Origin: a virus
DNA length: 34,232 bases
Virus record (IMG/VR): IMGVR_UViG_3300050015_000530
Coordinates: 1 to 34,232 of that record
Reading direction: 5' to 3' (one strand)
Shown: in pieces, positions 1,672 to 12,950 of the stretch
Layout of the letters: the number at the start of each line of letters is the position of its first letter
How positions within the stretch are numbered: position 1 is the stretch's first letter
Translations under genes and position numbers: made by a program
Notes under the pieces: generated by a model
Told to the model about the DNA's origin: nothing
The model's database searches: none
Seen by the model: the letters and a program-made list of their open reading frames with translations, nothing else

Positions 1672-1701
1672 TTTGGAATTAAGAAAACTTTACTATCTTT
1701 G
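1672..1701 (+). promoter_or_regulatory. Bacteroidota-type promoter of tRNA block 1
   Basis: TTTG at 1672-1675 and TATCTTTG at 1694-1701 are 18 nt apart, close to the Bacteroidota -33/-7 consensus. It drives the leader ORF at 1747 and, by read-through, the first tRNA block. The downstream CCAAGTATTTAA is repeated after the promoter at 26949. Confidence 0.8.
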
Positions 1702-1746
1702 CCAAGTATTTAAATGAAAGACTTAACAAATTTAAAAGATAAAACA

Positions 1747-1839
1747 ATGAAAAAGTTACTCGACATATTGGCAGCAGTCCTCATGGTGGATGTCCTATTA
1801 TGGGCAGCCGAAGAGGATAAGCTATGTACAGTCGGGTAA
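1747..1839 (+). CDS. 30-codon leader ORF ahead of tRNA block 1
   Basis: A short ORF (MKKLLDILAA ... DKLCTVG) begins 46 nt after the -7 element and ends just before a terminator. I see no known family. Its last codons (1829-1837, CAGTCGGGT, running into the stop codon) are perfectly complementary to the 5' arm of the terminator at 1881-1889, so translation to the stop would cover an anti-terminator strand. The leader ORF at 20903 also has exactly 30 codons. The sequence fits a leader peptide better than a functional protein, although a small host-takeover peptide is possible. Confidence 0.6.
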   Translation: MKKLLDILAAVLMVDVLLWAAEEDKLCTVG

Positions 1840-1880
1840 TACTTTGAATATTACAACCTCCTTTCTTTAATAAAAAGAAA

Positions 1881-1911
1881 ACCCGACTGATGAAAATTAG
1901 TCGGGTTTTTT
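1881..1911 (+). terminator. Attenuator-like intrinsic terminator 1
   Basis: ACCCGACT (1881-1888) pairs with AGTCGGGT (1899-1906), followed by a T-run. The 5' arm can instead pair over nine bases with 1829-1837 at the end of the leader ORF, giving mutually exclusive terminator and anti-terminator folds. tRNA block 1 begins 42 nt downstream. Confidence 0.8.
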
Positions 1912-1952
1912 GTTTTTTGAAAGGAGAAAGTTCTTTGACATGCTGGAAATTT

Positions 1953-2040
1953 GGTCTCAGGAGCTGCTTTGGTGTGGCTGCCGGGTTGTCACCCCGGAAC
2001 AGAGAAATCTGACAGGCGGGTTCGAATCCCGCTGGGACCG
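1953..2040 (+). tRNA. tRNA with GTC anticodon and a long variable arm (Asp-like, class II shape)
   Basis: The acceptor GGTCTCA/TGGGACC has discriminator G, the D-stem is AGCT/GGCT, the anticodon stem CCGGG/CCCGG closes loop TTGTCAC (anticodon GTC), and the T-arm is GCGGG/CCCGC. The variable region is 18 nt with a CAGA/TCTG stem, a class II (Ser/Leu/Tyr) shape unexpected for Asp. Identity is therefore uncertain. No CCA is encoded. Confidence 0.75.
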
Positions 2041-2054
2041 CCCTATGGTCGTTT

Positions 2055-2088
2055 TCTGTACTTCTCAGTATTTATTGAGAAATACAGA
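2055..2088 (+). promoter_or_regulatory. GTATTTAT element in hairpin loop before the GIY-YIG gene
   Basis: TCTGTA-c-TTCTCA pairs with TGAGAA-a-TACAGA (12 pairs, one C/A mismatch). The eight-base loop (2068-2075) is exactly GTATTTAT. The start codon follows two bases after the hairpin. The same leader recurs at 3262 and 29730. Confidence 0.75.
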
Positions 2089-2090
2089 TT

Positions 2091-2735
2091 ATGGCACGAA
2101 AAGAAAAACAATACCATTTCATTTATAAGACAACAAATTTATTGAACGGTAAATATTATTACGGAATGCATTCAACCGATAAATTAAATGACGGTTATTA
2201 CGGGTCGGGCAGAAGATTAAAACGTTCTTTAAATAAATATGGAAAAGAAAATCATGTTGTTGAAGTACTTGAACACTTTCCAAATAGGAAAGAGTTGATT
2301 GAACGTGAAAGGGAGATTATTAATTTGAATGAAATTGCAAAAGATGAATGTATGAATTTAATGGTCGGTGGTACAGGTGGATTTATTTCGGAAGAACAAC
2401 AACATCATCGTTCAGTTTGTGGTGGAAGAGCAACCGCAAGTAGACTTCTAATTGATGCCGAATTTCGTGAACAACATAGATTATCAACATCTAATAATAT
2501 GAAATTGCAACATCAGTTGGGTAAGATAAAATATGATACGTTCACAAATAAGAAACATTCTGAAGAATCGAAACGAATAATGTCAACTAAAGCAAGTATA
2601 CGTACTGGCGACAAAAATTCACAATATGGTACATGTTGGATAACAAAAGACGGAATAAATAAAAAAATAAAAATAGAAAATTTAGATACTTTTATTCTTA
2701 GTGACTGGACTAAAGGTAGAATAATACTCTCGTAG
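2091..2735 (+). CDS. GIY-YIG homing endonuclease (SegA-like), copy 1
   Basis: This 214-residue protein has the GIY-YIG core: YHFIY at residues 8-12, YYYG near 20, GYYGSGRRL with the catalytic-type Arg, and ERE..NLNE supplying the acidic residue near 75. The C-terminal third holds NUMOD3-like DNA-binding repeats (KHSEESKRIMS, GDKNSQYGTCWIT). It is a free-standing homing endonuclease that would nick or cut near a tRNA target. The stop codon (2733-2735) lies inside the following tRNA gene, so the last residues are encoded by tRNA sequence. It is paralogous to the genes at 3298 and 29766, and the shared leader suggests the cassette moves as a unit. Confidence 0.9.
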   Translation: MARKEKQYHFIYKTTNLLNGKYYYGMHSTDKLNDGYYGSGRRLKRSLNKYGKENHVVEVLEHFPNRKELIEREREIINLNEIAKDECMNLMVGGTGGFISEEQQHHRSVCGGRATASRLLIDAEFREQHRLSTSNNMKLQHQLGKIKYDTFTNKKHSEESKRIMSTKASIRTGDKNSQYGTCWITKDGINKKIKIENLDTFILSDWTKGRIILS

Positions 2736-2800
2736 GCTTCTTGGTGAAGAACTTGGCTGTCACCCATGTAAAATAGAGGGTTCGAACCCCTCCGGGAGTG
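2726..2800 (+). tRNA. tRNA-Asp(GTC), imperfect
   Basis: The acceptor ACTCTCG/CGGGAGT has discriminator G and the T-arm GAGGG/CCCTC is complete. The anticodon loop is CTGTCAC, with one T/T mismatch in the anticodon stem. The D-arm pairs poorly (CTTC/GAAG is out of register). The 5' acceptor strand is also the 3' end of the GIY-YIG gene, so this may be a tRNA damaged by the insertion. Confidence 0.6.
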
Positions 2801-2913
2801 CAAATCCAACCGAAAGACAAGTAGGTTACTGATGAAGCGGGGTTCGTATGCCCCAAACGTGCGGAGGTCGTGCTCTAACGTGCTCGGTGCAAAAAACAGT
2901 TTGGGGTTATTTT
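2801..2913 (+). other. Inter-tRNA spacer with inverted repeat
   Basis: No gene is seen. CCCCAAAC (2851-2858) can pair with GTTTGGGG (2899-2906). GGGGTTCGTATGCCCC (2839-2854) forms a competing T-arm-like hairpin, but no full tRNA fold fits. Confidence 0.45.
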
Positions 2914-2985
2914 CGAGGTCGTAGTTTAATGGTCAGAATGCTGCCCTGTCACGGCAGAGAAGGGGTTCGAGTCCCACGGCTTCGG
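2914..2985 (+). tRNA. tRNA-Asp(GTC), weak T-stem
   Basis: The acceptor CGAGGTC/GGCTTCG pairs with wobbles and discriminator G. The anticodon arm CTGCC-CTGTCAC-GGCAG is perfect (GTC). The T-stem has only three good pairs around TTCGAGT, so it may be decaying. It is the third GTC gene in 1 kb. Confidence 0.7.
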
Positions 2986-2990
2986 CAAAA

Positions 2991-3103
2991 TTACCGCTAT
3001 AACGGTAAAAATGTATGAAAAAGTGCATTATATGATACTTTTTAACACATTTTAACAGAAAATTACTGTTATAGCAGTAAAAAGTGCAATATATGATACT
3101 TTT
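2991..3103 (+). repeat. Paired hairpins with complementary loops plus a direct repeat
   Basis: Hairpin 2991-3008 (TTACCG, loop CTATAA, CGGTAA) and hairpin 3063-3080 (TTACTG, loop TTATAG, CAGTAA) have loops that are exact reverse complements. The stems differ by a compensated base pair. Each hairpin is followed by a near-identical 25-base unit containing AAGTGCAnTATATGATACTT. This fills most of the 180-base gap before the next tRNA. Confidence 0.7.
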
Positions 3104-3167
3104 GTATGCATTTACATATAATTGCATAAAAACACATAAATTCATATGCATTTGCATATAATTAAAT

Positions 3168-3248
3168 GCTGCGTTATACAAATGGCTAAAGTAGGCAGAC
3201 CTTCAATCTGTCCCGAAAGGTTCGTGGGTTCGAATCCCACACGCTGTA
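3168..3248 (+). tRNA. tRNA with TTC anticodon (Glu-like), C33, long variable arm
   Basis: The acceptor GCTGCGT/ACGCTGT has one T/T mismatch and discriminator A. Stem GCAGA/TCTGT closes loop CCTTCAA, giving TTC with C instead of the near-universal T at position 33. The variable arm (CCCGAAAGG) is class II-like. The T-arm GTGGG/CCCAC is perfect. Amino-acid identity is uncertain. Confidence 0.65.
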
Positions 3249-3261
3249 CTCTTGGTCGTTT

Positions 3262-3295
3262 TCTGTACTTCTCAGTATTTATTGAGAAATACAGA
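3262..3295 (+). promoter_or_regulatory. GTATTTAT element in hairpin loop before the GIY-YIG gene, copy 2
   Basis: Identical in structure to 2055-2088. GTATTTAT at 3275-3282 occupies the loop and the ATG follows two bases after the stem. Confidence 0.75.
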
Positions 3296-3297
3296 TT

Positions 3298-3939
3298 ATG
3301 GCAAGAAAAGAAAAACAATACCATTTCATATATAAGACAACAAATTTATTGAATGGTAAATATTATTATGGAATGCATTCCACTGATAATCTCAACGATG
3401 GATATTATGGGTCTGGAAAAAGATTAAAATATTCAATAAATAAATATGGTAAAGAAAATCATATTGTAGTACAACTTGAATTTCTTCCGGACAGAAAATC
3501 ATTAATTGAACGAGAGAAACTCTTAATTGATTTAAATGAAGTGGCAAAAGAAAAATGCATGAATTTGAGAATTGGTGGTAGTGGTGGATTACTTGGATTG
3601 CCGGAAGAAACAATAAAAAGAATTCGTAAGGGTGCATCAGAATTTATGACAAATTTGTGGAAAGACAAAAATTTCATTGATGGTCACGTTAAACGCTCAA
3701 GCAGAAGAATGAAGTGGTTAAATGAAACTCACGTAATAAAACATGACACTTTCACAAATAAAAAACACACAGATGAAACAAAAAGATTAATGTCAGTTAA
3801 GGCAAGTAAACATATTGGTGACAAAAATTCTCAATATGGTACTTGTTGGGTAACAAAAGATGGCATTAATAAAAAAATAAAAAATAACGATTTACTTATG
3901 TTTACCAATAATGGTTGGCATAAAGGTCGAATAATATAA
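3298..3939 (+). CDS. GIY-YIG homing endonuclease (SegA-like), copy 2
   Basis: A 213-residue paralogue of the gene at 2091. It has the same N-terminus (MARKEKQYHFIYKTTNLLNG), GIY-YIG core, acidic IERE segment and C-terminal GDKNSQYGTCWVT repeat. The middle (residues about 100-150) differs, as expected for divergent target recognition. It follows the Glu-like tRNA at 3168 and precedes a structured spacer rather than a tRNA, and its stop TAA is its own. Confidence 0.9.
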   Translation: MARKEKQYHFIYKTTNLLNGKYYYGMHSTDNLNDGYYGSGKRLKYSINKYGKENHIVVQLEFLPDRKSLIEREKLLIDLNEVAKEKCMNLRIGGSGGLLGLPEETIKRIRKGASEFMTNLWKDKNFIDGHVKRSSRRMKWLNETHVIKHDTFTNKKHTDETKRLMSVKASKHIGDKNSQYGTCWVTKDGINKKIKNNDLLMFTNNGWHKGRII

Positions 3940-4003
3940 GTGTTGAAACGATAAGAGAGTACTACTGACTACCAGTAGCCAACCTAAATCGGTTCAACGT
4001 TAT
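3940..4003 (+). other. Structured inter-tRNA spacer
   Basis: GTTGAA (3942-3947) pairs with TTCAAC (3993-3998) and encloses hairpin CTACTG/CAGTAG (3962-3978). No protein or tRNA fits. Confidence 0.5.
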
Positions 4004-4075
4004 GCTCGGTTCTTCTAACGGTAAGGAAAATAGACTCTCAATCTAAGAATGCGGTTTCGACTACCGCACCGAGTA
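4004..4075 (+). tRNA. tRNA-Glu(CTC)
   Basis: The acceptor GCTCGGT/ACCGAGT has discriminator A and CCA follows at 4076-4078. The anticodon loop CTCTCAA reads CTC on an ATAGA/TCTAA stem with one mismatch. The T-arm GCGGT/ACCGC is perfect. Confidence 0.8.
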
Positions 4076-4081
4076 CCAAAT

Positions 4082-4154
4082 GTTCGGTTCGTCTAATGGT
4101 CAGGACATCACCCTTTCACGGTGGGGATTATGGGTTCGAGTCCCAGTTTTCCCA
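4082..4154 (+). tRNA. tRNA-Glu(TTC) with unpaired acceptor stem
   Basis: The D-arm, anticodon arm (TCACC-CTTTCAC-GGTGG) and TTCGAGT loop are typical tRNA-Glu, and CCA follows. However, the 5' strand GTTCGGT does not pair with the 3' strand TTTTCCC. It resembles the 5' strand of the adjacent tRNA-Glu(CTC), which suggests conversion from that gene. Probably non-functional unless edited. Confidence 0.65.
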
Positions 4155-4159
4155 CCAAT

Positions 4160-4233
4160 GCATCTTTAACTCAGTTCGGAAGAGTGTCTATATGACATGT
4201 AGAAAGTCGGGGGTTCAAATCCCTCAAGATGCA
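4160..4233 (+). tRNA. tRNA-Val(GAC)
   Basis: The acceptor GCATCTT/AAGATGC is perfect with discriminator A. The D-stem is ACTC/GAGT, the anticodon loop ATGACAT gives GAC, and the T-arm GGGGG/CCCTC is present. Confidence 0.88.
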
Positions 4234-4241
4234 CAACACAT

Positions 4242-4315
4242 GGGAGTTTAGTTTAGTTGGTAAAAGCGTCTGGCTTACATCCAGAAGACCGGTGGTTCGA
4301 ATCCATCAACTCCTA
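4242..4315 (+). tRNA. tRNA-Val(TAC)
   Basis: The acceptor GGGAGTT/AACTCCT has a terminal G-T wobble and discriminator A. The anticodon arm TCTGG-CTTACAT-CCAGA is perfect (TAC). The T-arm GGTGG/CCATC is present. Confidence 0.92.
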
Positions 4316-4372
4316 CAATATCGGCTTAAACGCCTATAAACGCCTTTTATAGGTTCTACAACCTATAAACAA

Positions 4373-4456
4373 CCGATTGTGGTGGAATTGGCAGACACGC
4401 CAGACTAAGAATCTGGTGCCAGCAATGGTTTGTGGGTTCGACTCCCACCAATCGGA
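4373..4456 (+). tRNA. tRNA-Leu(AAG)
   Basis: The acceptor CCGATTG/CAATCGG is perfect with discriminator A. Stem CCAGA/TCTGG closes CTAAGAA (AAG), and the class II variable arm is proper. A34 Leu tRNAs are uncommon in bacteria and would need inosine to read beyond CUU. A short hairpin (CCTATAAA/TTTATAGG) lies just upstream at 4333-4353. Confidence 0.88.
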
Positions 4457-4459
4457 CAA

Positions 4460-4550
4460 AATCTAATTGACAATGAACAGCGTTCCCTGACGTTGTGCTG
4501 GTCGTCTAACAAGGCGGCTCACCAGCTTGCAAGGTGTGGCTTATTAGATT
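4460..4550 (+). ncRNA. Putative three-way-junction RNA between tRNAs
   Basis: Three helices fold without conflict. AATCTAAT (4460) pairs with ATTAGATT (4543) as closing stem, ACAGCG (4477) with CGTTGT (4491), and GCTGGT (4497) with ACCAGC (4521). No TTCRANT loop is present, so it is not a canonical tRNA. It may be a remnant, a processing signal or a small RNA. Confidence 0.5.
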
Positions 4551-4555
4551 TATAT

Positions 4556-4637
4556 ACGGGCATCGTCTAATGGTAAGACACTCTCCGTCCAAGGGGAGAA
4601 ATAGGCTGCAGTCAGGGTTCAAATCCCCTTGTCCGTG
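4556..4637 (+). tRNA. tRNA-Gly(TCC)-like, G33, long variable region
   Basis: The acceptor ACGGGCA/TGTCCGT has discriminator G, and D-stem GTCT/AGAC is good. By standard numbering the loop is CGTCCAA (TCC) with G at position 33. A six-pair stem CTCTCC/GGGGAG would instead leave a six-base loop. The T-stem is imperfect. Identity and function are doubtful. Confidence 0.55.
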
Positions 4638-4642
4638 CAAAT

Positions 4643-4725
4643 GCGGGTGTGATGGAATGGTTAAGACATGCGTGCCTTAGAAGCACGTGCCGAAAGGCGT
4701 GGGGGTTCGACTCCCTTCATCCCTA
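4643..4725 (+). tRNA. tRNA-Leu(TAG)
   Basis: The anticodon arm CGTGC-CTTAGAA-GCACG is perfect (TAG). The class II variable arm TGCCGAAAGGCG is well formed. The acceptor GCGGGTG/CATCCCT has a C2/C71 mismatch. Discriminator A. Confidence 0.82.
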
Positions 4726-4759
4726 CTAAAAGTAAACAAAATTGTTTAGTTTATAAAAT

Positions 4760-4833
4760 GCAGGTGTAGTCGAATTGGTATAGACAACACGCTCAGACCG
4801 TGAAATTTGCGAGTTCGAATCTCGCCACCTGTA
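4760..4833 (+). tRNA. tRNA with CAG anticodon (Leu codon) but class I shape
   Basis: The acceptor GCAGGTG/CACCTGT has discriminator A, the loop is CTCAGAC (CAG) and the T-arm GCGAG/CTCGC is perfect. The variable region is only five bases. Genuine Leu tRNAs have a long arm, so either charging or identity is unusual. Confidence 0.8.
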
Positions 4834-4916
4834 CAAAATCGACTGTTATAGTTTTGACCGTGAGTTCTATAATGAAAATTTAAAGACTGATGGTGACACT
4901 CTGAGAGAAGAGACAC

Positions 4917-4990
4917 GGGGAATTCGCTTAGTTGGCTAAAGCATCTGCCTTGCACGCAGAAAATCAAGGGTTCGACTCCCTTATTCTCCA
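4917..4990 (+). tRNA. tRNA-Ala(TGC)
   Basis: The acceptor GGGGAAT/ATTCTCC has discriminator A and CCA is encoded at 4991-4993. The anticodon arm TCTGC-CTTGCAC-GCAGA is perfect. The T-arm AAGGG/CCCTT is present. Confidence 0.93.
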
Positions 4991-5000
4991 CCAAACATTC

Positions 5001-5023
5001 TGAGTTCAAGTCCAATCTTTTCC
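5001..5023 (+). pseudogene. Orphan tRNA 3'-end remnant
   Basis: GAGTTCAAGTCC followed by TTTTCCA resembles a T-loop and 3' acceptor strand without a 5' half. It lies between tRNA-Ala and the HNH gene. Its similarity to the 3' part of tRNA-Glu at 4082 suggests a fragment left or carried by the insertion. Confidence 0.35.
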
Positions 5024-5054
5024 AGAATTTAATGTATTTATGTAAAAAGAAAAG
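5017..5054 (+). promoter_or_regulatory. GTATTTAT element flanked by a hairpin before the HNH gene
   Basis: CTTTTC (5017-5022) and GAAAAG (5049-5054) flank GTATTTAT at 5034-5041. The start codon follows at 5056. Confidence 0.6.
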
Positions 5055-5055
5055 T

Positions 5056-5808
5056 ATGATTAAAGTAATTTGCACACAATGCAACAATGAATTTGAAAAA
5101 TCTGAATCTGAATATAAACGAACTGAAAAAAGAAATCAGAATCATTTTTGCTCAAATAAGTGCTATAATGAGTTCAGAAGCATAAATTCAATTACACATT
5201 GCAAATTTTGTGGTACTGAACTAAAATCAAAGAACTTTTGTTCAAATAGTTGTGCTGCATCCTATAATAATAAGCACAGAATTGTAAACGATAGAAAATT
5301 TTCAGATGGTGGAATAAAAAATATTGTAGATGCAAGACATATTAAATTGAATATTTTACTTATCGAGTACAACAAAAATCCTAAATTTTGTAGAGAATGT
5401 AATTTAATGTTATCATACCGAAATAGAAACCGGAAATTTTGTTCGATTGAATGTAAAAGAAAGTATGAAAGAAAAAATTTGAATGAATATCAAAAATATT
5501 ATAAAGAATGTCAATTTGATTTCAATTTATCTGATTATCCAAATAAATTTAATTTCAAATTGATTGAAGAATATGGTTGGTATCGACCAAAAAATCATGG
5601 TAATAATTTAACTGGAATTAGTAGAGACCATATGATTTCAATAAAATATGGATATGAAAATAACATTAGTCATGAAATAATTAAACATCCGGCTAATTGC
5701 CAACTAATGATACATAATGAAAATGTTCGAAAACATAAGGGATGTTCAATTACTTTAAATGAATTGTTGAATAAAATAAACATTTGGGGCAGTGGTGACA
5801 ACGGCTAA
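5056..5808 (+). CDS. HNH homing endonuclease with N-terminal zinc fingers
   Basis: I start this 250-residue protein at the ATG at 5056, 14 nt after GTATTTAT. Successive Cys clusters (CTQCNNEFEKS, CSNKC, CKFCG, CSNSCAASYNN, CRECN, CSIECKRKYE) form treble-clef-like zinc fingers. The C-terminal part has an HNH-type SRDHMISIKYG ... HPANCQLM ... NENVRKHKG signature. The last six residues and the stop lie inside the tRNA-Ala gene at 5786, so the ORF overlaps that tRNA by 23 nt. This is expected for a free-standing mobile endonuclease sitting next to its presumed target. Confidence 0.85.
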   Translation: MIKVICTQCNNEFEKSESEYKRTEKRNQNHFCSNKCYNEFRSINSITHCKFCGTELKSKNFCSNSCAASYNNKHRIVNDRKFSDGGIKNIVDARHIKLNILLIEYNKNPKFCRECNLMLSYRNRNRKFCSIECKRKYERKNLNEYQKYYKECQFDFNLSDYPNKFNFKLIEEYGWYRPKNHGNNLTGISRDHMISIKYGYENNISHEIIKHPANCQLMIHNENVRKHKGCSITLNELLNKINIWGSGDNG

Positions 5809-5858
5809 CACGATGCGCTTGCACCGCATAGATGGGGTTTCGATTACCCCCTGCTCCA
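5786..5858 (+). tRNA. tRNA-Ala(TGC), second copy
   Basis: The acceptor GGGGCAG/CTGCTCC has discriminator A. The anticodon arm ATGCG-CTTGCAC-CGCAT is perfect and the T-arm is GGGGT/ACCCC. The first 23 bases are also coding sequence of the HNH gene. Confidence 0.88.
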
Positions 5859-5863
5859 CAAAT

Positions 5864-5937
5864 GGTCCAATACTTCAATCGGCAGAGGGGAACGGCTTAA
5901 ACCCGTTATAGTGTGGGTTCGAATCCCACTTGGACTA
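5864..5937 (+). tRNA. tRNA with TAA anticodon (Leu codon) but class I shape
   Basis: The acceptor GGTCCAA/TTGGACT has discriminator A and CCA is encoded at 5938-5940. The anticodon arm AACGG-CTTAAAC-CCGTT gives TAA. The variable region is only five bases, unlike normal Leu tRNAs. The T-arm GTGGG/CCCAC is perfect. Confidence 0.83.
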
Positions 5938-5984
5938 CCAAAATTGCCGGAAGCTGCCGGATAGGTAAAATCAAATAATTTTAT

Positions 5985-5992
5985 TATCTTTG
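5985..5992 (+). promoter_or_regulatory. Possible Bacteroidota -7 element
   Basis: TATCTTTG lies about 55 nt before the Vsr-like gene, but no TTTG is found at the expected -33 distance. Weak. Confidence 0.35.
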
Positions 5993-6026
5993 CACGCAAG
6001 AAAGTATTCGAAAAATAAAATTTGAA

Positions 6027-6034
6027 GTATTTAT
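6027..6034 (+). promoter_or_regulatory. GTATTTAT-class element
   Basis: GTATTTAT ends 12 nt before the start codon at 6047. Only a weak flanking GAA/TTC inverted repeat is visible here. Confidence 0.6.
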
Positions 6035-6046
6035 AATAAAATTCAT

Positions 6047-6721
6047 ATGATACCACAATATACCGAAGAAGAATTTAAATTAGCAAAGTCAACAGACCTT
6101 TTGCCATGTAAATGTGTTATCTGTAATAACACATTTTATAAGCAGAAACGGGTGATAAATAGGACCACCACCAATTACGATAGAAATACGGGTGATTTTT
6201 GTTCCAGGGAATGTAAAAGAAAATCAGAAGGTGGTTTTGAAAGCGTTACTTGTGCAAATTGTGGTAAGATAATAATTAAACACTCTTCCGCAATAAAAAA
6301 ATCAAAAACTGGAAATCATTTCTGCTCAAAATCTTGTGCTGTTTCATACAATAATACACATAAGACTACGGGTAATCGTAGGTCAAAACTTGAAATGTAC
6401 ATTGAAAATTACTTAAAGTCAGCACATCCGGATATCGAAGTGCTATTCAACGACAAGCAAACAATTAATTCAGAGTTAGATATATTTTTACCAAAGCATA
6501 AACTTGCATTTGAACTTAGTGGAATATTTCACTACGAACCAATATTTGGTAAAGAAAAACTGACCCAAATTCAGAATAATGATAATAGAAAATTCCAAGC
6601 CTGTTTAGAAAAGGGAATTGAATTATGTATCATCAACACATCTGAATTAAAATATTTTAAAGAAAAAAACGCAGTAAAATATTTAAACATTATACTGCAG
6701 GTTATAAATACACATCGGTAG
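6047..6721 (+). CDS. Vsr/EDxHD-like homing endonuclease with zinc fingers, copy 1
   Basis: This 224-residue protein starts with a conserved leader segment (EEEFKLAKSTDLLPCKC) and zinc-finger Cys pairs (CVICN, CSRECKRKS, CANCGK, CSKSCAVSYNN). A PD-(D/E)XK-like nuclease core follows: NRRSKLEMYIE, NSELDIFLPKHKLAFELSG, IFHYEPIFG and NDNRKFQACLEKGIEL. The ELDI...FEL...HY arrangement resembles very-short-patch-repair type homing endonucleases. Paralogues lie on the minus strand at 12984-13679 and 21550-22242. The stop TAG (6719-6721) falls in the following tRNA, so the natural C-terminus may be about residue 220. Confidence 0.85.
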   Translation: MIPQYTEEEFKLAKSTDLLPCKCVICNNTFYKQKRVINRTTTNYDRNTGDFCSRECKRKSEGGFESVTCANCGKIIIKHSSAIKKSKTGNHFCSKSCAVSYNNTHKTTGNRRSKLEMYIENYLKSAHPDIEVLFNDKQTINSELDIFLPKHKLAFELSGIFHYEPIFGKEKLTQIQNNDNRKFQACLEKGIELCIINTSELKYFKEKNAVKYLNIILQVINTHR

Positions 6722-6784
6722 TTCAGTTGGTAGAATAGTGGTCTCCAAAAGCAAAGGTCGGGAGTTCGAACCTCTCCAGACGTG
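6712..6784 (+). tRNA. tRNA-Trp(CCA), degraded
   Basis: The loop CTCCAAA gives CCA, and the D-arm and T-arm (GGGAG/CTCTC) are recognisable. The acceptor ACATCGG/CAGACGT has two mismatches and the anticodon stem GTGGT/AGCAA has two. The 5' end is shared with the end of the Vsr-like gene. Likely a decaying copy beside an insertion. Confidence 0.6.
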
Positions 6785-6810
6785 CAAAATAAATTTTCAT
6801 TTAATGTATA

Positions 6811-6866
6811 GTTTTGCTGTTCGAGAATGTATTTATATAAAAATATAAAATCATGAACAGCAAAAC
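6811..6866 (+). promoter_or_regulatory. Twelve-base-pair hairpin enclosing GTATTTAT and holding the HNH start codon
   Basis: GTTTTGCTGTTC (6811-6822) is the perfect complement of GAACAGCAAAAC (6855-6866). The 3' strand begins at the G of the ATG at 6853 and covers the first codons. GTATTTAT (6829-6836) lies in the loop. RNA started inside the loop would lack the 5' strand and free the start codon. Confidence 0.8.
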
Positions 6867-7599
6867 CGATAATTTTTCAAATGAAGAAATAAAAGAAATA
6901 CTTTCTGAATGTAAATCATTTAGAGAAGTATTGTCAAAAATTGGATATAATAGTAATGGAAGTGGTGGTTATTCATTACTCAAACAACAATTAAAAAAAC
7001 GCAATATAATTATACCAAAATATCATTATTATGGTAGTGGTAATAAATATAATAGAGTCAATTTATTAGAAATTTTGGTTGAAAATTCAACATATACAAA
7101 CAGAGCAGTATTAAAAACTCGTTTAGTTAAAGAAGGATTATTAGAATATAAATGTAAGTGCGGTAATAGAGGTGTTTGGGAAGGAAAAAAATTATCATTA
7201 CAATTAGAGCATAAAAATGGAATTAATAATGACAATAGAATTGAAAATCTTGAATTTTTATGTCCAAATTGTCACACTCAATCAAAGACATTTGCTGGTA
7301 AAAACAATAAGTGTTCATTAAGAAAAAAAATAAAAAAAGCACAAATAAAATTATTTAAAGAAATTAAACATTGTATATGTGGTGCTGAAATAAAGAATGA
7401 AAGCACTGTCTGTCAAAAATGTCATCACGAAAATTTACGAAAAATTAAAATAAGACCAACTTATGGTGAACTAATAAATGACATTACTTTTTTTGGTGGA
7501 TATACTGCAACAGGAAAAAAATATGGTGTTTCTGACAATACAATACGTAAATGGCTTAATTTCTATGAAAAACAAATATCAAATACGTCTGTCGTCTAA
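6853..7599 (+). CDS. HNH homing endonuclease
   Basis: A 248-residue protein with an N-terminal HTH-like region (SFREVLSKIGYNSNGSGGY), then LKTRLVKEGLLEYKCKCG, LQLEHKNGINNDNRIENLEFLCPNCHTQSKTF, which is the classic HNH/treble-clef core with Cys pairs near residues 101-103 and 138-141. A second zinc pair (CICGAE, CQKCH) and a C-terminal HTH (TGKKYGVSDNTIRKWLN) follow. The final codons lie in the tRNA-Gly gene at 7585, overlapping it by 15 nt. Start choice is supported by the hairpin and GTATTTAT. Confidence 0.9.
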   Translation: MNSKTDNFSNEEIKEILSECKSFREVLSKIGYNSNGSGGYSLLKQQLKKRNIIIPKYHYYGSGNKYNRVNLLEILVENSTYTNRAVLKTRLVKEGLLEYKCKCGNRGVWEGKKLSLQLEHKNGINNDNRIENLEFLCPNCHTQSKTFAGKNNKCSLRKKIKKAQIKLFKEIKHCICGAEIKNESTVCQKCHHENLRKIKIRPTYGELINDITFFGGYTATGKKYGVSDNTIRKWLNFYEKQISNTSVV

Positions 7600-7656
7600 C
7601 GGCTAAGATAGCGGCTTCCAACCCCGTGGATGAGGTTTCGATTACTTCCAGACGTG
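7585..7656 (+). tRNA. tRNA-Gly(TCC) with enlarged anticodon loop
   Basis: The acceptor ACGTCTG/CAGACGT is perfect with discriminator G and the T-arm is GAGGT/ACTTC. The anticodon region CGG-CTTCCAACC-CCG reads TCC but closes best as a nine-base loop with two extra C residues. Extra bases here recall frameshift-suppressor tRNAs. Confidence 0.65.
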
Positions 7657-7659
7657 CAA

Positions 7660-7793
7660 TGATGTGATAGTAAAAATCGCAGGTATGCGTAGCAGATTAG
7701 CGTTCTCTCCAAAGGAACTAAAAGTATAATCACCACTGAGGGCATTCATTTGTACCCAAGAGCAGTATCAGTTAGCTACGCACTACCACATCA
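7660..7793 (+). ncRNA. Putative 134-nt structured RNA
   Basis: TGATGTG (7660) pairs with CACATCA (7787). GGTA-TGCGTAGC (7682-7693) pairs with GCTACGCA-c-TACC (7775-7787) over 12 pairs with one bulge; the two helices share only the base at 7787. The interior is unassigned. No ORF or tRNA fits. Strand is inferred from the neighbouring tRNAs. Confidence 0.55.
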
Positions 7794-7824
7794 GACAAGT
7801 AGTAATAACTAATAAGAAAGGAGC

Positions 7825-7941
7825 ATGCCTTCAAAATCAGATTTAGGTATCGTAAAACATTGTGGTGGAGATTTGTACATTACAATTATTTCCACAAGCA
7901 ACTCTTTAAAAGGTACTACGTACAAAGAGGTAGAAAGCTAA
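7825..7941 (+). CDS. Short hypothetical ORF with a strong ribosome site
   Basis: A 38-codon ORF (MPSKSDLGIVKHCGGDLYI ...) is preceded by AAGAAAGGAG, one of few strong Shine-Dalgarno sites here. The coherent, basic coding-like frame from 7860 overlaps it in another frame, so one of the two may be false or a frameshift may join them. No family recognised. Confidence 0.4.
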   Translation: MPSKSDLGIVKHCGGDLYITIISTSNSLKGTTYKEVES

Positions 7942-8048
7942 CACCAAAACAAATTAAAAAGTACGAATTTTACAAAAAACTCGATGATTTAATCACCTTG
8001 AGAAAGGTTGATTGGTTGCGAGATTTCATCTGGAGATTAGAACCTTAG
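7860..8048 (+). CDS. Hypothetical basic protein
   Basis: This frame is open from upstream of 7812 and looks protein-like (KLTPKQIKKYEFYKKLDDL ... FIWRLEP), but it has no ATG; the first start is TTG at 7860. It is rich in Lys, Arg, Tyr and Phe. The ATG with a good ribosome site at 7825 is out of frame, so a frameshift (programmed or a sequence error) is possible. Function unknown. Confidence 0.45.
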   Translation: MWWRFVHYNYFHKQLFKRYYVQRGRKLTPKQIKKYEFYKKLDDLITLRKVDWLRDFIWRLEP

Positions 8049-8079
8049 AAATTATTTTCGTATTTATCTGTAACATTTC

Positions 8080-8110
8080 TTGTTTTATTACGTATAATAC
8101 AGTAATTTTG
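8080..8110 (+). promoter_or_regulatory. Bacteroidota-type promoter, near-leaderless start
   Basis: TTG at 8080-8082 and TAATTTTG at 8103-8110 are separated by 20 nt. The start codon at 8115 is only four bases after the -7 element, implying a leaderless or nearly leaderless message. Confidence 0.6.
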
Positions 8111-8114
8111 ACAA

Positions 8115-8354
8115 ATGAAAAAGACTGTCATACAAAAAATAATTGCAGATATTGAGGTAATTAATTCCAGAGGAATCGAATTAACCCCCAAAGGTATTCT
8201 GATTATTTTGGAAAACAGTCTTGGTGACGAAAAGAAACAGATAATGGATGCTTTTGAGGAAGGTGTAGGTTATGAACAATCACTACTTGGTAAAGTAGAT
8301 TATCCTGCTTCAAGGTATTATCACGGCACGTTTGAAACAAATAAAAGGGAATAA
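8115..8354 (+). CDS. Hypothetical phage protein (79 aa)
   Basis: The first gene of a tight run of small genes to 10121. It is acidic and helical (IIADIEVINSRGIELTPKGI ... GDEKKQIMDAFEEGVGYEQ). Its stop overlaps the next start as TAATG, so the two are translationally coupled. I recognise no family. Confidence 0.75.
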   Translation: MKKTVIQKIIADIEVINSRGIELTPKGILIILENSLGDEKKQIMDAFEEGVGYEQSLLGKVDYPASRYYHGTFETNKRE

Positions 8355-9094
8355 TGTATATCATTGCAAAGAAGAAAGATTATTATGATGGTGTTGCCGG
8401 GACTACAGGTATCGACAAAACTATTGTATATGAGCGTGAAATTCAAGAATTCGAAGGCGAAGATATGCCAAAAGTGTTTAGAAGTAAAGGTTACTTCACT
8501 AATTTCAGGGAAAGAGAAAACAATCCACTCTATAAATTAGGTAATTCTCACATAAAACACGAATATTGGAAAAAAATTCCCCGTCATTCATATTTTCTCA
8601 TTGGCTTTTGTGGAAAACTTTACGTTGGCTTTAAACTTTACAGTCTTATAGACACAGAAGAATATAACAACGTAATTACAACAATCACATATGACCACGA
8701 TTATATGATTGAACTTTTCGAAAACAAAACATACGGTGGATATTTTCAAGACAATCTGAATAGCGTATTACATTACGATGCATTACATTGGTTCAGAGAT
8801 ATGAAAACACCGTGCTTTGTATATGACCAAGACTTTGGTGGAATCGACCATATTGACCTAAAACATTATGGCTATAATCCACACTCAAAATTTATTGTTA
8901 ATCCACTTTTAAAAGATTATCAGTTTTATAAGGTCTTCGATGCTGTTCAAGCATTTCAAGAAGTATCAATGTTTATGGGTGGTGTACTTGGCAGGGGAGA
9001 AAAGGAAATTGTTGAAGTGGCAGATAAATATAAAATTGCACAACACGGCTTTAATAAATGGAGTTTTAGAAAAGAATCAACAGATAAAAAATAG
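8354..9094 (+). CDS. Hypothetical phage protein (246 aa)
   Basis: A 246-residue soluble protein with no signal or membrane segment. It has a Tyr-rich N-terminus, a SYFLIGFCGKLYVGF strand pair near 75-92, YDHDYMIELF, an acidic VYDQDFGGIDHIDLKHYGY segment and a C-terminal KDYQFYKVFDAVQAFQEVS ... GGVLGRGE block. It resembles conserved hypothetical proteins of large phages in general feel, but I cannot name a function. It sits between coupled small genes, so it is probably early or middle expressed from the promoter at 8080. Confidence 0.8.
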   Translation: MYIIAKKKDYYDGVAGTTGIDKTIVYEREIQEFEGEDMPKVFRSKGYFTNFRERENNPLYKLGNSHIKHEYWKKIPRHSYFLIGFCGKLYVGFKLYSLIDTEEYNNVITTITYDHDYMIELFENKTYGGYFQDNLNSVLHYDALHWFRDMKTPCFVYDQDFGGIDHIDLKHYGYNPHSKFIVNPLLKDYQFYKVFDAVQAFQEVSMFMGGVLGRGEKEIVEVADKYKIAQHGFNKWSFRKESTDKK

Positions 9095-9096
9095 TT

Positions 9097-9324
9097 ATGG
9101 TAACAAGAAAAGAAGTACTGGAGTTCGTTGAAAATAATTTAATGAACCTAACCGAAGAAAGAAAAAATTTCAGTGAAACTGATAGTCTTGATAAAATCGA
9201 ACTCGTCATTGAATGTGAAAGGGAATACAACCTTGAAATTGACGAAAATGATGTTCTACCAGACTTCGATACCGAAATGTTTGTAGACTTTCTCATGAAA
9301 AAAATCAAAGAAAATGAAAGTTAA
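9097..9324 (+). CDS. Acyl-carrier-protein-like protein
   Basis: This 75-residue acidic protein has the length and helix pattern of an acyl carrier protein. TDSLDKIELVIECEREYNLEI (residues 28-48) aligns by eye with the DSL-x-x-(V/I)EL-(V/I)-x-x-(F/Y) signature, with Ser30 at the 4'-phosphopantetheine position. VDFLMKKI at the end resembles helix 4. A carrier protein would hold a thioester-linked acyl or aminoacyl group. No ketosynthase or ligase partner is visible nearby, so the role is unknown. The downstream ATG overlaps its end by 11 nt. Confidence 0.65.
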   Translation: MVTRKEVLEFVENNLMNLTEERKNFSETDSLDKIELVIECEREYNLEIDENDVLPDFDTEMFVDFLMKKIKENES

Positions 9325-9526
9325 GATAGGTGATAAGATTTACGATGCCAATGAAGAACCCGTCATGTTGATATTTGAAAGTGACATACAAAGAATCGCA
9401 GTTGGTCAGCACTTAATTAACATGCCAGACGGTGGACGCAAATATTGCATGTATCCTGACAGTATGGACCACGAAGTTGTGAGAGACTTCATGAAAACTG
9501 ATAGTGATGATAAAAAACCTGAGTGA
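9314..9526 (+). CDS. Hypothetical small phage protein (70 aa)
   Basis: It overlaps the carrier-like gene by 11 nt. A beta-rich start (MKVKIGDKIYDANEEPVMLI) suggests a small barrel-like domain. The tail is very acidic (DSDDKKPE). No family assigned. Confidence 0.7.
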   Translation: MKVKIGDKIYDANEEPVMLIFESDIQRIAVGQHLINMPDGGRKYCMYPDSMDHEVVRDFMKTDSDDKKPE

Positions 9527-9710
9527 TATTCTAAAACTTAAACCCACCAAATTAAGTGAAGTGGTAATTGACATAGAATCGCTTAGACCACAAAAGGGAA
9601 ATACAGGCATCAAGATTTATGGGTCTTTGGAATTTTGTAGAAAATTTGAGGAAATATTAAATGGAACGGGAACTACACAAAATACACATAATACCCGCAA
9701 GGTTCATTGA
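9507..9710 (+). CDS. Hypothetical small protein (67 aa)
   Basis: It starts at ATG 9507 (a GTG directly precedes it), overlapping the upstream gene by 20 nt and the downstream gene by 50 nt. The first two thirds look genuine (LSDILKLKPTKLSEVVIDIE ... FCRKFEEIL), while the His/Thr-rich tail overlaps the next gene. Function unknown. Confidence 0.55.
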   Translation: MIKNLSDILKLKPTKLSEVVIDIESLRPQKGNTGIKIYGSLEFCRKFEEILNGTGTTQNTHNTRKVH

Positions 9711-9924
9711 AAAACACCCCAAGGGTTATGTAATCAGGTGTTATATTCAAGAAGATATGCTGGAAGACAGACTATTTGACGAGTATTCGCTGATGGGAAT
9801 GAAAAATCCCAAGTATTTATTTATCGGCATAATGTCGGGTGTAGGATTTTCTCAGTGTAATTTTGTACAGGCAGATGAATACGAAAAAATGTTTAAAAGA
9901 AAATGGAAAAGTTTGACGAAATAA
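9661..9924 (+). CDS. Hypothetical phage protein (87 aa)
   Basis: A small mixed alpha/beta protein (MERELHKIHIIPARFIEK ... YLFIGIMSGVGFSQC ... YEKMFKRKWKSL). It overlaps both neighbours in the compressed array. No family recognised. Confidence 0.65.
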   Translation: MERELHKIHIIPARFIEKHPKGYVIRCYIQEDMLEDRLFDEYSLMGMKNPKYLFIGIMSGVGFSQCNFVQADEYEKMFKRKWKSLTK

Positions 9925-10121
9925 GAGAAAGACTTTGGACTTCATTCGGTGTGATGAAACCCGCAGACAGTGGTGATTTATCAGACATTGGAAATGAAAT
10001 TGGTACAATTGTTGGACAATATTGTGACGAAGAGAATAGTATTGAAGATTTTATAAGAGGTTTAAGACACGGGAAATCACTGATTGATGGTACGCATGAT
10101 AAAGCGTATCCGTTTATTTAA
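9903..10121 (+). CDS. Hypothetical phage protein (72 aa)
   Basis: The last gene of the small-gene run, overlapping the preceding gene by 22 nt. Acidic and helical (MEKFDEIRERLWTSFGVM ... EDFIRGLRHGKSLIDG). It ends seven bases before the tmRNA gene. No family recognised. Confidence 0.7.
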   Translation: MEKFDEIRERLWTSFGVMKPADSGDLSDIGNEIGTIVGQYCDEENSIEDFIRGLRHGKSLIDGTHDKAYPFI

Positions 10122-10128
10122 AATAATT

Positions 10129-10479
10129 GGGGCAGCCTGGATTTGACAGCGTGGCAGAGTGGTATAGTAAGCAAGTGGTAGTTGAATCAGACTACGTTAA
10201 AAAGGTTCAAAACAACAAACGCAGAAGACATAATGTCTATTCCAACTTCTCTCACGAGAGGTAAAGCAGTATTCGCAAGACAAGCTGAACTTGCAATCGC
10301 AGCATAGGAATCAAAAAATTCGGCAAAGAACCCCGAACTCGATAGGGATAAATTCGAGACGGTTTGCGAATGAACCGTTGAAATCATTCGACATTTTGTT
10401 GGTTTAGGAAAATCAAATAAACTTGTAGAAAACGTATTAGTCGCATGACTGGACAAGGGTTCAACTCCCTTCTGCTCCA
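10129..10479 (+). ncRNA. ssrA: tmRNA with an unusually long tag reading frame
   Basis: The tRNA-like ends GGGGCAG/CTGCTCC with discriminator A, the 5' CTGGATTTGACAGCG block and the 3' T-arm AAGGG-TTCAACT-CCCTT identify tmRNA for trans-translation rescue of stalled ribosomes. After AACAACAAAC the likely resume codon is GCA at 10221. The frame is open to TAG at 10305-10307 and encodes 28 residues ending in AELAIAA. Usual tags have about 8-12 residues with ALAA-like ends. The ending fits a protease-recognition tag; the length is odd. Confidence 0.9.
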
Positions 10480-10502
10480 CTTCCACAAACTTTTCCGCAC
10501 TT

Positions 10503-10530
10503 CCACAGTATTTATAATAAAATATTGTGG
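10503..10530 (+). promoter_or_regulatory. GTATTTAT element inside a hairpin before the HNH gene
   Basis: CCACAGTATTT (10503-10513) pairs with AAATATTGTGG (10520-10530) with one G-T wobble. The motif overlaps the 5' strand and loop, and the ATG follows at 10534. Confidence 0.65.
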
Positions 10531-10533
10531 AAG

Positions 10534-11076
10534 ATGGAAAAGTATAAAAGAAAAACAGCAGTAGTTATATGTTATAACTGCAATACTCCGTTTGAAAAAG
10601 CGGTTTCAGAAATAAAAAGAACGGAAGCAAAAGGTAAAAAACATTATTGCTCCCAAAGTTGCCTTGGAAAAACAAATATTAAAAATCTGGGCATTTGGAT
10701 AGGAAAGGGAAATGTTGATAATTTTAATGGTAAAACTCAAAGAGACCAATTTACTGGTTTTCGGGAATTTATAAGGAGAGCAAAACGAAGAAAAAACTTG
10801 GGTGATTTAACATTAGACGATTTGCTTGAACAATGGAATAAACAAAACGGTAAATGTCCATACACAGGAATTGAACTTAAGTTACCTCAAGCAAGAAAAA
10901 GACATCAGATGTTTGAAATGGCATCGCTTGACCGAGTTGATTCGAATAAACCATATGAAAAAAATAATGTGGTGTTTGTGTCAACACCAATAAACTACAT
11001 GAAAAATTCGATGACCGAAGAAGAAACAGTTGCTTTTTGCAAAAAAATTGCGTTATTTTGGATAAATAAATTATGA
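10534..11076 (+). CDS. HNH homing endonuclease
   Basis: I use the ATG at 10534, 18 nt after GTATTTAT; a TTG nine bases upstream is the alternative. The 180-residue protein begins with a zinc-finger-like CYNCNTPFEKAVSEIKRTE ... CSQSC segment shared with other endonucleases here. It then has GKCPYTGIEL and MASLDRVDSNKPYEKNNV-VFVS, an HNH variant common in phage homing enzymes. The stop overlaps the next start as ATGA. It lies just downstream of the tmRNA, itself a tRNA-like target. Confidence 0.85.
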   Translation: MEKYKRKTAVVICYNCNTPFEKAVSEIKRTEAKGKKHYCSQSCLGKTNIKNLGIWIGKGNVDNFNGKTQRDQFTGFREFIRRAKRRKNLGDLTLDDLLEQWNKQNGKCPYTGIELKLPQARKRHQMFEMASLDRVDSNKPYEKNNVVFVSTPINYMKNSMTEEETVAFCKKIALFWINKL

Positions 11077-11264
11077 CTGACGAAGAAATAAATAAACTTG
11101 ACAGAGCGAAAGAAGCAATACTTTTTGTGCTCTACATGAATCATCCAAATACTATGAAAAAAAGGGATGTTGAAGCCAAAATATTAGCAGACGGACTACT
11201 TAAAATGTCAGATAAAGAATTTGATGAATATAAAAGAAAATTTGAACTAACAAAATTAAATTAA
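11073..11264 (+). CDS. Hypothetical small protein (63 aa)
   Basis: It overlaps the HNH gene by four bases (ATGA) and lies two bases before the next gene. Helical and charged (MTDEEINKLDRAKEAILFVL ... DEYKRKFELTKLN). No family recognised. Confidence 0.7.
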   Translation: MTDEEINKLDRAKEAILFVLYMNHPNTMKKRDVEAKILADGLLKMSDKEFDEYKRKFELTKLN

Positions 11265-11266
11265 TT

Positions 11267-12147: not shown

Positions 12148-12148
12148 T

Positions 12149-12255
12149 GGCGTAGTGGTGGAATTGGTAGACACGCTGGACTTAGTGCTTTAATCAGAGC
12201 AAATCAAATCCAGTGGGCAGTAATGTCCGTGTGGGTTCGACTCCCATCTTCGCTA
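12149..12255 (+). tRNA. tRNA-Leu(TAG) with a 21-nt hairpin inserted in the anticodon loop
   Basis: The Leu-type D-arm, class II variable arm, T-arm GTGGG/CCCAT and acceptor GGCGTAG/CTTCGCT (one mismatch, discriminator A) are clear. Stem CTGGA/TCCAG closes a 28-base loop: CTTAG, then 21 extra bases, then AA. Removing the insert gives CTTAGAA (TAG). The insert folds as TGCTTT/AGAGCA with a four-base loop. Function requires removal of the insert or tolerance of it. Confidence 0.75.
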
Positions 12256-12259
12256 CACA

Positions 12260-12267
12260 GTATTTAT
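12260..12267 (+). promoter_or_regulatory. GTATTTAT-class element
   Basis: GTATTTAT ends 14 nt before the start codon at 12282, directly after tRNA-Leu. Confidence 0.65.
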
Positions 12268-12281
12268 AGTAAAATATAATC

Positions 12282-12914: not shown

Positions 12915-12950
12915 CCATCCTCATGTGGTGGAACTGATAATTTCAAAAAT

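What the first reader, a model, noticed from the sequence alone, without database searches (positions are those of the whole stretch)
1672..1911. Attenuator-like leader 1 in front of a phage tRNA block
A host-type promoter, a 30-codon ORF and an intrinsic terminator precede the first tRNAs. The end of the ORF (1829-1837) is perfectly complementary over nine bases to the 5' arm of the terminator (1881-1889), while the terminator stem has eight GC-core pairs. A ribosome reaching the stop would mask the anti-terminator strand; a stalled or absent ribosome would allow read-through into the tRNAs. This suggests tRNA transcription that responds to translation efficiency during infection. Classical attenuation regulates biosynthesis operons; its use for a phage tRNA array would be new to me.
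Basis: partly seen in the sequence, partly recalled or inferred. Interest (0 to 1): 0.85.

Follow-up and report, generated by a model that had tools for sequence, protein, structure and literature searches.

The report
Phage tRNA operons with codon-sensing attenuators
In a group of very large bacterial viruses, each cluster of viral tRNA genes sits behind a tiny gene whose codons call for the same amino acids as the tRNAs that follow, next to an RNA switch placed so that the tRNAs would be made when ribosomes run short of them; such amino-acid-sensing switches were known for bacterial biosynthesis genes and a tRNA-synthetase operon, but not, as far as I could find, for viral tRNAs.

Summary
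The window (IMG/VR fragment, probably a Bacteroidota jumbo phage) has three such leaders, before tRNA blocks at 1952, 21062 and 27223; relatives add a fourth. Each is promoter, 24-40-codon ORF, strands 2/3/4 and terminator. A structural detector that ignored peptide content, run on 2.4 Mb of 21 phage contigs, gave 43 strong hits, all leaders just upstream of tRNA blocks. Control codons stop 9-16 nt before strand 2, about a ribosome's leading edge. In two more distant huge phages tRNAs are grouped differently and the leaders change to match (combined P 4e-20; correct assignment is the best of 40,320). In one of them, tRNA-synthetase genes carry cognate leaders too: IleRS IIII, LeuRS LLLPL, ValRS VVVNV, AsnRS/ArgRS NNRNR. 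Best explanation: ribosome-mediated transcription attenuation that turns on tRNA or synthetase genes when ribosomes stall on the cognate codons. All evidence is sequence and computed folding; no transcription data. No prior description found in the open-access library. New variant of a known kind.

The parts
1672..1701 (+). Leader 1 promoter: TTTG (1672-1675), 18-nt spacer, TATCTTTG (1694-1701)
   Evidence: TAnnTTTG found upstream of 45 of 47 distinct leaders, spacer 19 nt in 28
1747..1839 (+). Leader 1 ORF MKKLLDILAAVLMVDVLLWAAEEDKLCTVG*; control codons for Asp, Glu, Val, Leu, Ala, Trp (Met)
   Evidence: conserved in relatives
1755..1764 (+). Strand 1 (GTTACTCGAC), pairs with 1831-1840 to form the protector 1:2
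   Evidence: -33.8 kcal/mol for the 1:2 hairpin
1829..1837 (+). Strand 2 (CAGTCGGGT), antiterminator
1881..1889 (+). Strand 3 (ACCCGACTG), 5' arm of the terminator
1898..1906 (+). Strand 4 (TAGTCGGGT), 3' arm of the terminator
1876..1918 (+). Intrinsic terminator of leader 1 with T tract
1952..14455 (+). tRNA block 1 (Asp x3, Glu, Val x2, Leu, Ala x2, Trp x2, Met; tmRNA at 10129-10480) with homing endonucleases and other genes between; includes a second promoter-like site at 5985
20832..20862 (+). Leader 2 promoter: TTTG (20832-20835), TACATTTG (20855-20862)
20903..20995 (+). Leader 2 ORF MRTFGKYYYGKKSYKKQFIRIGNTMSKTQS*; control codons for Tyr and Lys
20961..20968 (+). Leader 2 strand 2 (GAATCGGG), complementary to 21028-21035
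21026..21055 (+). Leader 2 terminator
21062..21585 (+). tRNA block 2 (Tyr x3 counting one at 21153-21265 found by Rfam only, Lys x3)
26949..26979 (+). Leader 3 promoter: TTTG (26949-26952), TATCTTTG (26972-26979)
27021..27140 (+). Leader 3 ORF MKTYRNISSISTSTTSRNGNGIFCSDFTGRNIMDGVMVI*; control codons for Thr, Cys, Asn, Ile, Ser, Phe, Gly, Arg
27123..27128 (+). Leader 3 strand 2 (GGGGTT), complementary to 27175-27180
27173..27208 (+). Leader 3 terminator
27223..34196 (+). tRNA block 3 (Thr, Cys, Ile, Ser, Phe, Gly, Asn, Arg; continues to the end of the window)

Best explanation
Each leader is a ribosome-mediated transcription attenuator, of the trp/his kind in mechanism, that controls a phage tRNA operon. 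A ribosome translates a short ORF whose codons before the decision point are cognate to the tRNAs encoded downstream. If those aminoacyl-tRNAs are plentiful it passes the control codons and its leading edge covers strand 2, strand 3 pairs with strand 4, and transcription ends before the tRNAs. If any is scarce the ribosome stalls 9 nt or more before strand 2, strand 2 pairs with strand 3 before strand 4 is made, and the operon is transcribed. The product refills the pool that caused the stall, so the loop is a negative feedback on tRNA supply. Shown here: the sequence layout, the match between peptide and tRNA set, the geometry, conservation, re-matching in phages with other tRNA groupings, and the computed structures. 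Inferred: transcription, translation, stalling and read-through.
For: Peptide-block match: own-set fractions over 9-13 distinct peptides per type are .71 vs .33 expected (DEVLAWM).32 vs .14 (KY).82 vs .45 (TCNISFGR).37 vs .08 (PHQ); 0 of 200,000 random partitions of the 20 amino acids reach the observed 71/119. The match stops at the decision point.81/.50/.89/.57 upstream.34/.11/.63/.03 downstream. The last control codon lies 9-16 nt from strand 2 in the 46 distinct leaders listed. Folding over 46 units: P(2:3 before strand 4) .95-1.00 with a ribosome mid-control, P(3:4) .91-.99 past it (window leaders). Specific detector hits. Re-matching in LR745206.1 and LR756500.1: His/Phe/Trp/Lys, Arg/Ser, Glu/Tyr/Ile/Gly/Met, Asn/Arg/Leu/Val/Ile/Thr/Met, Pro/Asp/Gln, His/Glu/Val/Trp/Leu, Lys/Met/Phe, Ala/Leu/Pro/Tyr/Gln/Gly/Thr; Fisher P 4e-20, own assignment best of 40,320. 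Cognate leaders before synthetase genes in LR745206.1. Matched change in strands 2, 3 and 4 between G008 and G020 (GTCGGG/CCCGAC/GTCGGG to GTCGAG/CTCGAC/GTCGAG). Several rare codons over-represented among control codons, e.g. GAG .53 vs .09, CTC .23 vs .02, CCC .35 vs .06, CGC .26 vs .02.
Against: No transcriptome, reporter or protein evidence. At full equilibrium 3:4 beats 2:3 in leaders 1 and 4, so the decision must be kinetic. Promoter-like sites inside blocks 1 and 3 (5985, 30689) could serve the distal tRNAs without the leader. Strand 2/3 covariation reaches significance only for TCNISFGR (3/20,000) and weakly DEVLAW (392/20,000), not KY or PHQ, where the strands hardly vary, and the test ignores relatedness. 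Leaders of one type share ancestry, so counts across phages are not independent. KY leaders also hold conserved non-cognate residues (GNTMSK) that I do not explain. The PHQ, HisRS and AspRS leaders have few control codons or weaker pairing.
Confidence: 0.91

Rival explanations
1. General translation sensor: the ribosome's presence or speed, whatever the codon, sets read-through.
For: The structural switch alone would work with any codons.
Against: Leader composition follows the downstream tRNA set in every lineage and the bias ends at the decision point.
Confidence: 0.04
2. The leader ORF encodes a functional small protein and the hairpin is just the end of the upstream unit or a transcription insulator.
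For: The peptides of one type are well conserved; leader 1 looks like a short hydrophobic helix.
Against: The peptides differ completely between block types and change with the tRNA grouping in distant phages; a strand complementary to the terminator arm lies in the coding sequence in nearly all of them.
Confidence: 0.03
3. Same attenuators, but the signal that matters is amino-acid starvation of the host cell rather than loss or shortage of tRNA molecules.
For: Classical attenuators answer to amino-acid supply (PMC1183508); both situations lower aminoacyl-tRNA.
Against: Making more tRNA does not cure lack of an amino acid; no amino-acid biosynthesis gene was seen to carry such a leader in the phages scanned, but I did not search for those genes specifically.
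Confidence: 0.25
4. The tRNA blocks are transcribed mainly from internal or upstream promoters and the leaders only fine-tune them.
For: TATCTTTGC sites at 5985 and 30689 inside blocks 1 and 3; blocks run up to 12 kb with protein genes between tRNAs.
Against: Those two sites lie just before protein ORFs at 6047 and 30734; the KY and PHQ blocks are compact and close behind their leaders.
Confidence: 0.2

Closest known systems
Ribosome-mediated attenuators of amino-acid biosynthesis operons (trp, his, leu, thr, ilvGMEDA, pheA)
   Same: Leader ORF with regulatory codons, alternative 1:2, 2:3, 3:4 pairings, intrinsic terminator, decision by ribosome position (PMC1183508)
   Different: The regulated product is tRNA itself; one leader surveys up to eight amino acids at once and covers the set encoded in its operon; several leaders partition the 20 amino acids; it sits in a phage
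pheST attenuator of E. coli (phenylalanyl-tRNA synthetase operon)
   Same: Attenuation of a gene for the translation machinery by tRNA-Phe supply (references in PMC4082710); the synthetase leaders of LR745206.1 are of this kind
   Different: pheST has one amino acid and is bacterial; here several synthetase genes of one phage and its tRNA operons carry separate cognate leaders
T-box riboswitches
   Same: Sense tRNA charging and control synthetase genes (own knowledge)
   Different: T-boxes bind tRNA directly without translation; no T-box match in the window, and here the sensor is a translated ORF
Phage tRNAs as anti-defence (T5/SP15 tRNA-Tyr against retron-Eco7 PtuAB; tRNA-Lys against PrrC)
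   Same: Phage-borne tRNAs replace host tRNAs that defences destroy (PMC11555353; PMC10264068)
   Different: There a strong promoter is invoked; no regulated, codon-sensing expression is described

Membership tests
Ribosome-mediated transcription attenuator | Short leader ORF with several regulatory codons cognate to the operon's product | tested here: met
   'product' here is the tRNA set or the synthetase
Ribosome-mediated transcription attenuator | Mutually exclusive antiterminator (2:3) and terminator (3:4) before the first structural gene | tested here: met
   (computed folding)
Ribosome-mediated transcription attenuator | Stall at a control codon leaves strand 2 free; passage masks it | tested here: met
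   Last control codon 9-16 nt before strand 2; switch of computed pairing at that point
Ribosome-mediated transcription attenuator | Protector pairing 1:2 that disfavours 2:3 without translation | tested here: inconclusive
   Mean probability .56-.73 without a ribosome, but leaders 1 and 2 still favour 2:3 at equilibrium before strand 4
Ribosome-mediated transcription attenuator | Read-through rises when the cognate aminoacyl-tRNA is limiting | not testable with these tools
   Needs a reporter or RNA-seq
Amino-acid biosynthesis operon attenuator | Controls genes that make the sensed amino acid | tested here: not met
   Downstream genes are tRNAs or synthetases
T-box riboswitch | Rfam T-box structure with tRNA-binding specifier loop | tested here: not met
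   Rfam scan of the window: tRNA and tmRNA only

The most novel reading that the evidence does not exclude
The leaders form a phage-wide alarm for tRNA destruction. Huge phages partition the 20 amino acids among tRNA and synthetase operons, each silenced by its own attenuator, and when a host defence or the phage's own takeover removes particular tRNAs, only the operon that replaces them is released. The separate Lys+Tyr operon fits: tRNA-Lys and tRNA-Tyr are the targets of PrrC and of PtuAB of retron-Eco7 (PMC11555353).
Probability: 0.4. Interest if true: 0.96.

Novelty: new variant of a known kind. Interest (0 to 1): 0.93.

Why it matters
Why phages carry many tRNAs has been argued over for decades, between codon compensation and evasion of tRNA-cleaving defences (PMC10264068, PMC11025619). 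These leaders say what the phage itself measures: the supply of exactly those aminoacyl-tRNAs whose genes follow. That makes the question testable, since each leader is a ready-made reporter for depletion of a named set of tRNAs during infection. It would also be the first case I know of in which attenuation controls tRNA genes, in which one leader surveys up to eight amino acids, and in which a virus runs a coordinated attenuation regulon over tRNAs and synthetases. The peptide-to-tRNA match is a strong sequence signature for finding more of them in metagenomes.

Tried and rejected
Relatives in annotated phages: no DNA match of the leader region, none of the KY leader; the neighbouring VWA gene gives only <60% (best listed 37%) matches, mostly in enterobacterial phages. 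Genome contigs (GTDB): no relative of the VWA gene, so no host link from there. One degenerate KY pattern was miswritten and found nothing, the corrected one found 26 stretches. The cultured Bacteroides phage DAC19, a distant relative by ribonucleotide reductase, has only four tRNA matches and no such leader before its Gln-Met-Leu cluster. T-box and other Rfam leaders: no match. Stop-codon recoding as a reason to distrust the ORFs: TAG ends about 4-7% of long ORFs in the four largest contigs, so no sign of recoding there, and the leaders I read base by base end in TAA or TGA (and sequence). The first detector missed leaders with G-U in the 2:3 pairing or off-limit spacing; reading the upstream ORFs found most of them. 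Literature: ten searches found no phage tRNA attenuator, but subscription papers are not held.

Full report
What was checked. The three competing hairpins fold at -33.8 (1:2), -17.2 (2:3) and -22.0 kcal/mol (3:4), all well below shuffled sequence.

Three leaders in the window. The same layout occurs before the tRNA blocks at 21062 and 27223. Their peptides are MRTFGKYYYGKKSYKKQFIRIGNTMSKTQS and MKTYRNISSISTSTTSRNGNGIFCSDFTGRNIMDGVMVI. The first stands before tRNA-Tyr and tRNA-Lys genes, the second before Thr, Cys, Ile, Ser, Phe, Gly, Asn and Arg genes. Leader 1, MKKLLDILAAVLMVDVLLWAAEEDKLCTVG, stands before Asp, Glu, Val, Leu, Ala, Trp and Met genes. Each peptide is made largely of the amino acids of its own block. 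Relatives carry a fourth leader, MKRLTNIQPQPQQHPQMSEWGSYA, before Pro, His and Gln genes. Together the four blocks cover all 20 amino acids without overlap.

Relatives. A shared promoter string and neighbouring genes led to further IMG/VR contigs, of which 21 including the window were read whole or nearly so. Contigs up to 365 kb have the same order of blocks: PHQ, DEVLAW(M) with tmRNA in several, KY, TCNISFGR. A detector that looks only for a terminator, a small ORF and a segment in that ORF's 3' part complementary to the terminator arm found 68 hits in 2.41 Mb on both strands. Of these 59 lie within 700 nt upstream of a tRNA. Of 43 hits with at least 8 bp, 42 do, and the last is the PHQ leader of its phage at 766 nt. 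Most leaders missed by the detector are seen by reading the upstream ORFs, for example MFTFGTYYYGKKSYKKQLMRIGNAVFKIQC before Lys/Tyr tRNAs in G008 and the divergent MKKGNTYYKKYYYKHYVCKTGNTVLLSEKETDN before Tyr/Lys in G016. In G011 no leader was found before its single tRNA-Tyr.

Statistics. Over the distinct peptides of each type the own-set fraction is .71.32.82 and .37 against .33.14.45 and .08 expected from the phage proteome. For one set of four leaders (three from the window, PHQ from G003) binomial P values are 2e-6, 5e-3, 2e-5 and 3e-5, and none of 200,000 random partitions of the amino acids does as well. Leaders of one type are related by descent, so peptides of different phages are not independent trials; the single-set test avoids this.

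Geometry. In the 46 distinct leaders listed, the last cognate codon lies 9-16 nt before strand 2 (9 nt was the cut used). With that codon in the A site the ribosome's leading edge just reaches strand 2. Upstream of that point 81%, 50%, 89% and 57% of residues are cognate (DEVLAW, KY, TCNISFGR, PHQ), downstream 34%, 11%, 63% and 3%. Folding of the RNA in front of a ribosome agrees. With the ribosome in mid-control the antiterminator forms with probability .95-1.00 before strand 4 exists, and with the ribosome past the control codons the terminator forms with .91-.99. Without a ribosome strand 2 is paired upstream with probability .56-.73, but in leaders 1 and 2 it still prefers strand 3 at equilibrium, so the no-translation state is open. 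Final equilibrium favours 3:4 in leaders 1 and 4, so the choice must be kinetic; I recall the same for trp, but did not test it.

Evolution of the strands. Strand 2 lies in or at the end of coding sequence, yet tracks strand 3. For TCNISFGR leaders own pairs are more stable than cross pairs (-15.2 against -13.0 kcal/mol; 3 of 20,000 permutations as good), for DEVLAW 392 of 20,000; KY and PHQ strands hardly vary. The permutations ignore relatedness. A clear single case: G020 has GTCGAG/CTCGAC/GTCGAG in strands 2/3/4 where its close relative G008 has GTCGGG/CCCGAC/GTCGGG.

Phages with other groupings. The best RNR matches led to two huge phage genomes in the annotated collection, LR745206.1 (634,780 bp) and LR756500.1 (462,018 bp). 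Their tRNAs are grouped differently, and the leaders found by the same kind of detector match the new groups: MTTMNLNMTMNLTLNVVNITLCNIR... before Asn, Arg, Leu, Val, Ile, Thr, Met...APVNPQPQDQDPM... before Pro, Asp, Gln; MTTNSTHKNFSKSHKWFS... before His, Phe, Trp, Lys; MKTINNTSKSSSRSSS... before Arg, Ser; MNTITNIASYESYYEEG... before Glu, Tyr, Ile, Gly, Met; and in LR756500.1 MKTLSTYPLGQAQTLGTP... before Ala, Leu, Pro, Tyr, Gln, Gly, Thr. Eight leaders give a combined P of 4e-20, and the true assignment is the best of all 40,320. The tRNA sets were taken from ARAGORN up to the next leader or the next large gap, a choice of mine that is least certain for LR756500.1.

Synthetase genes. In LR745206.1 a leader MKTMTINNRNRLTDII with its own terminator stands before an asparaginyl-tRNA synthetase (NF003037, 414.1 bits, cut-off 414) and an arginyl-tRNA synthetase-like gene (PF00750 above its cut-off; TIGR00456 below). 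Others: MNFNTIIIIRYSIPWSIPIG before IleRS (TIGR00392, 674 bits, above cut-off), MINNNVNILLLPLT before a short LeuRS-like gene (TIGR00396, 390 bits, below cut-off), MKTINLNNLVVVNVSV before a ValRS-like gene (below cut-off), MKNIRLNDDRFLLTNCKADW before AspRS (NF003483, above cut-off), MRALHTYKITIDLG before a HisRS-like gene (below cut-off; only one His codon). The LeuRS leader's strand 2 lies just after its stop codon and includes a G-U pair, read by eye.

How it most likely works. Ribosome-mediated attenuation with the operon's own tRNA set as the signal, giving negative feedback on tRNA supply. The physiological trigger is not shown. It could be codon demand, loss of host tRNAs, cleavage of tRNAs by defences, or amino-acid shortage. 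The Lys+Tyr block is suggestive because tRNA-Lys and tRNA-Tyr are known targets of PrrC and PtuAB (PMC11555353).

Host. The window is an IMG/VR fragment of unknown host. The promoter form TTTG-N19-TAnnTTTG upstream of most leaders points to Bacteroidota, from my own knowledge of that motif. PMC7162821 states that its phage genomes above 634 kb were all predicted to replicate in Bacteroidetes; that LR745206.1 is one of them is my inference from its length.

Known or new. The mechanism class is old (PMC1183508). Attenuation of a synthetase operon is known for pheST (PMC4082710). I found no report of attenuation of tRNA genes, of leaders that survey up to eight amino acids, or of such control in a phage, in ten searches of the open-access library; the huge-phage paper of 2020 has no mention of leaders or attenuation. 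I therefore call it a new variant of a known kind, with high interest.

Noticed in passing
G008 268386, G009 148036, G010 293630, G012 24623, G015 37955, G017 36791, G002 43842 (oriented contig coordinates): A tRNA with CTA anticodon (labelled Pyl by ARAGORN, probably an amber suppressor) sits behind the last tRNA block in seven contigs, although TAG still ends about 4-7% of long ORFs in the four largest contigs; role unclear.
   Followed up: partly
window 2091-2735, 3298-3939, 29766-30422, 6853-7599, 5032-5808: Putative homing endonucleases lie between tRNA genes: GIY-YIG (2091, Pfam), two similar copies by eye (3298, 29766), HNH (6853, just under Pfam's cut-off), and 5032 (no Pfam match, Cys-rich).
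   Followed up: partly
window 10129-10480: A phage tmRNA gene with tag AEDIMSIPTSLTRGKAVFARQAELAIAA in block 1; in LR756500.1 a tmRNA directly follows its own attenuator-like leader MLQRFDMHMIAKFSGKSSLG with a 10-bp 2:3 pairing.
   Followed up: partly
window 26341-26874: Only the C-terminal part of a VWA-domain protein gene (about 750 aa in relatives) remains, between the ribonucleotide reductase gene and leader 3.
   Followed up: no
window 4556-4638: A tRNA-like gene that ARAGORN leaves unnamed because it reads a four-base anticodon (ccaa); could be a tRNA-Trp(CCA) with a shifted loop.
   Followed up: no
LR745206.1: ORFs at 404831, 345425 and on the minus strand at reverse-complement position 599072: Several synthetase genes are shorter than normal (LeuRS-like 422 aa, ValRS-like 443 aa, HisRS-like 211 aa); whether these are mini-enzymes, split genes or broken is open.
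   Followed up: no
window 5985-5993 and 30689-30697: Promoter-like TATCTTTGC sites inside tRNA blocks 1 and 3, each just before a protein ORF; distal tRNAs might be transcribed from them.
   Followed up: partly
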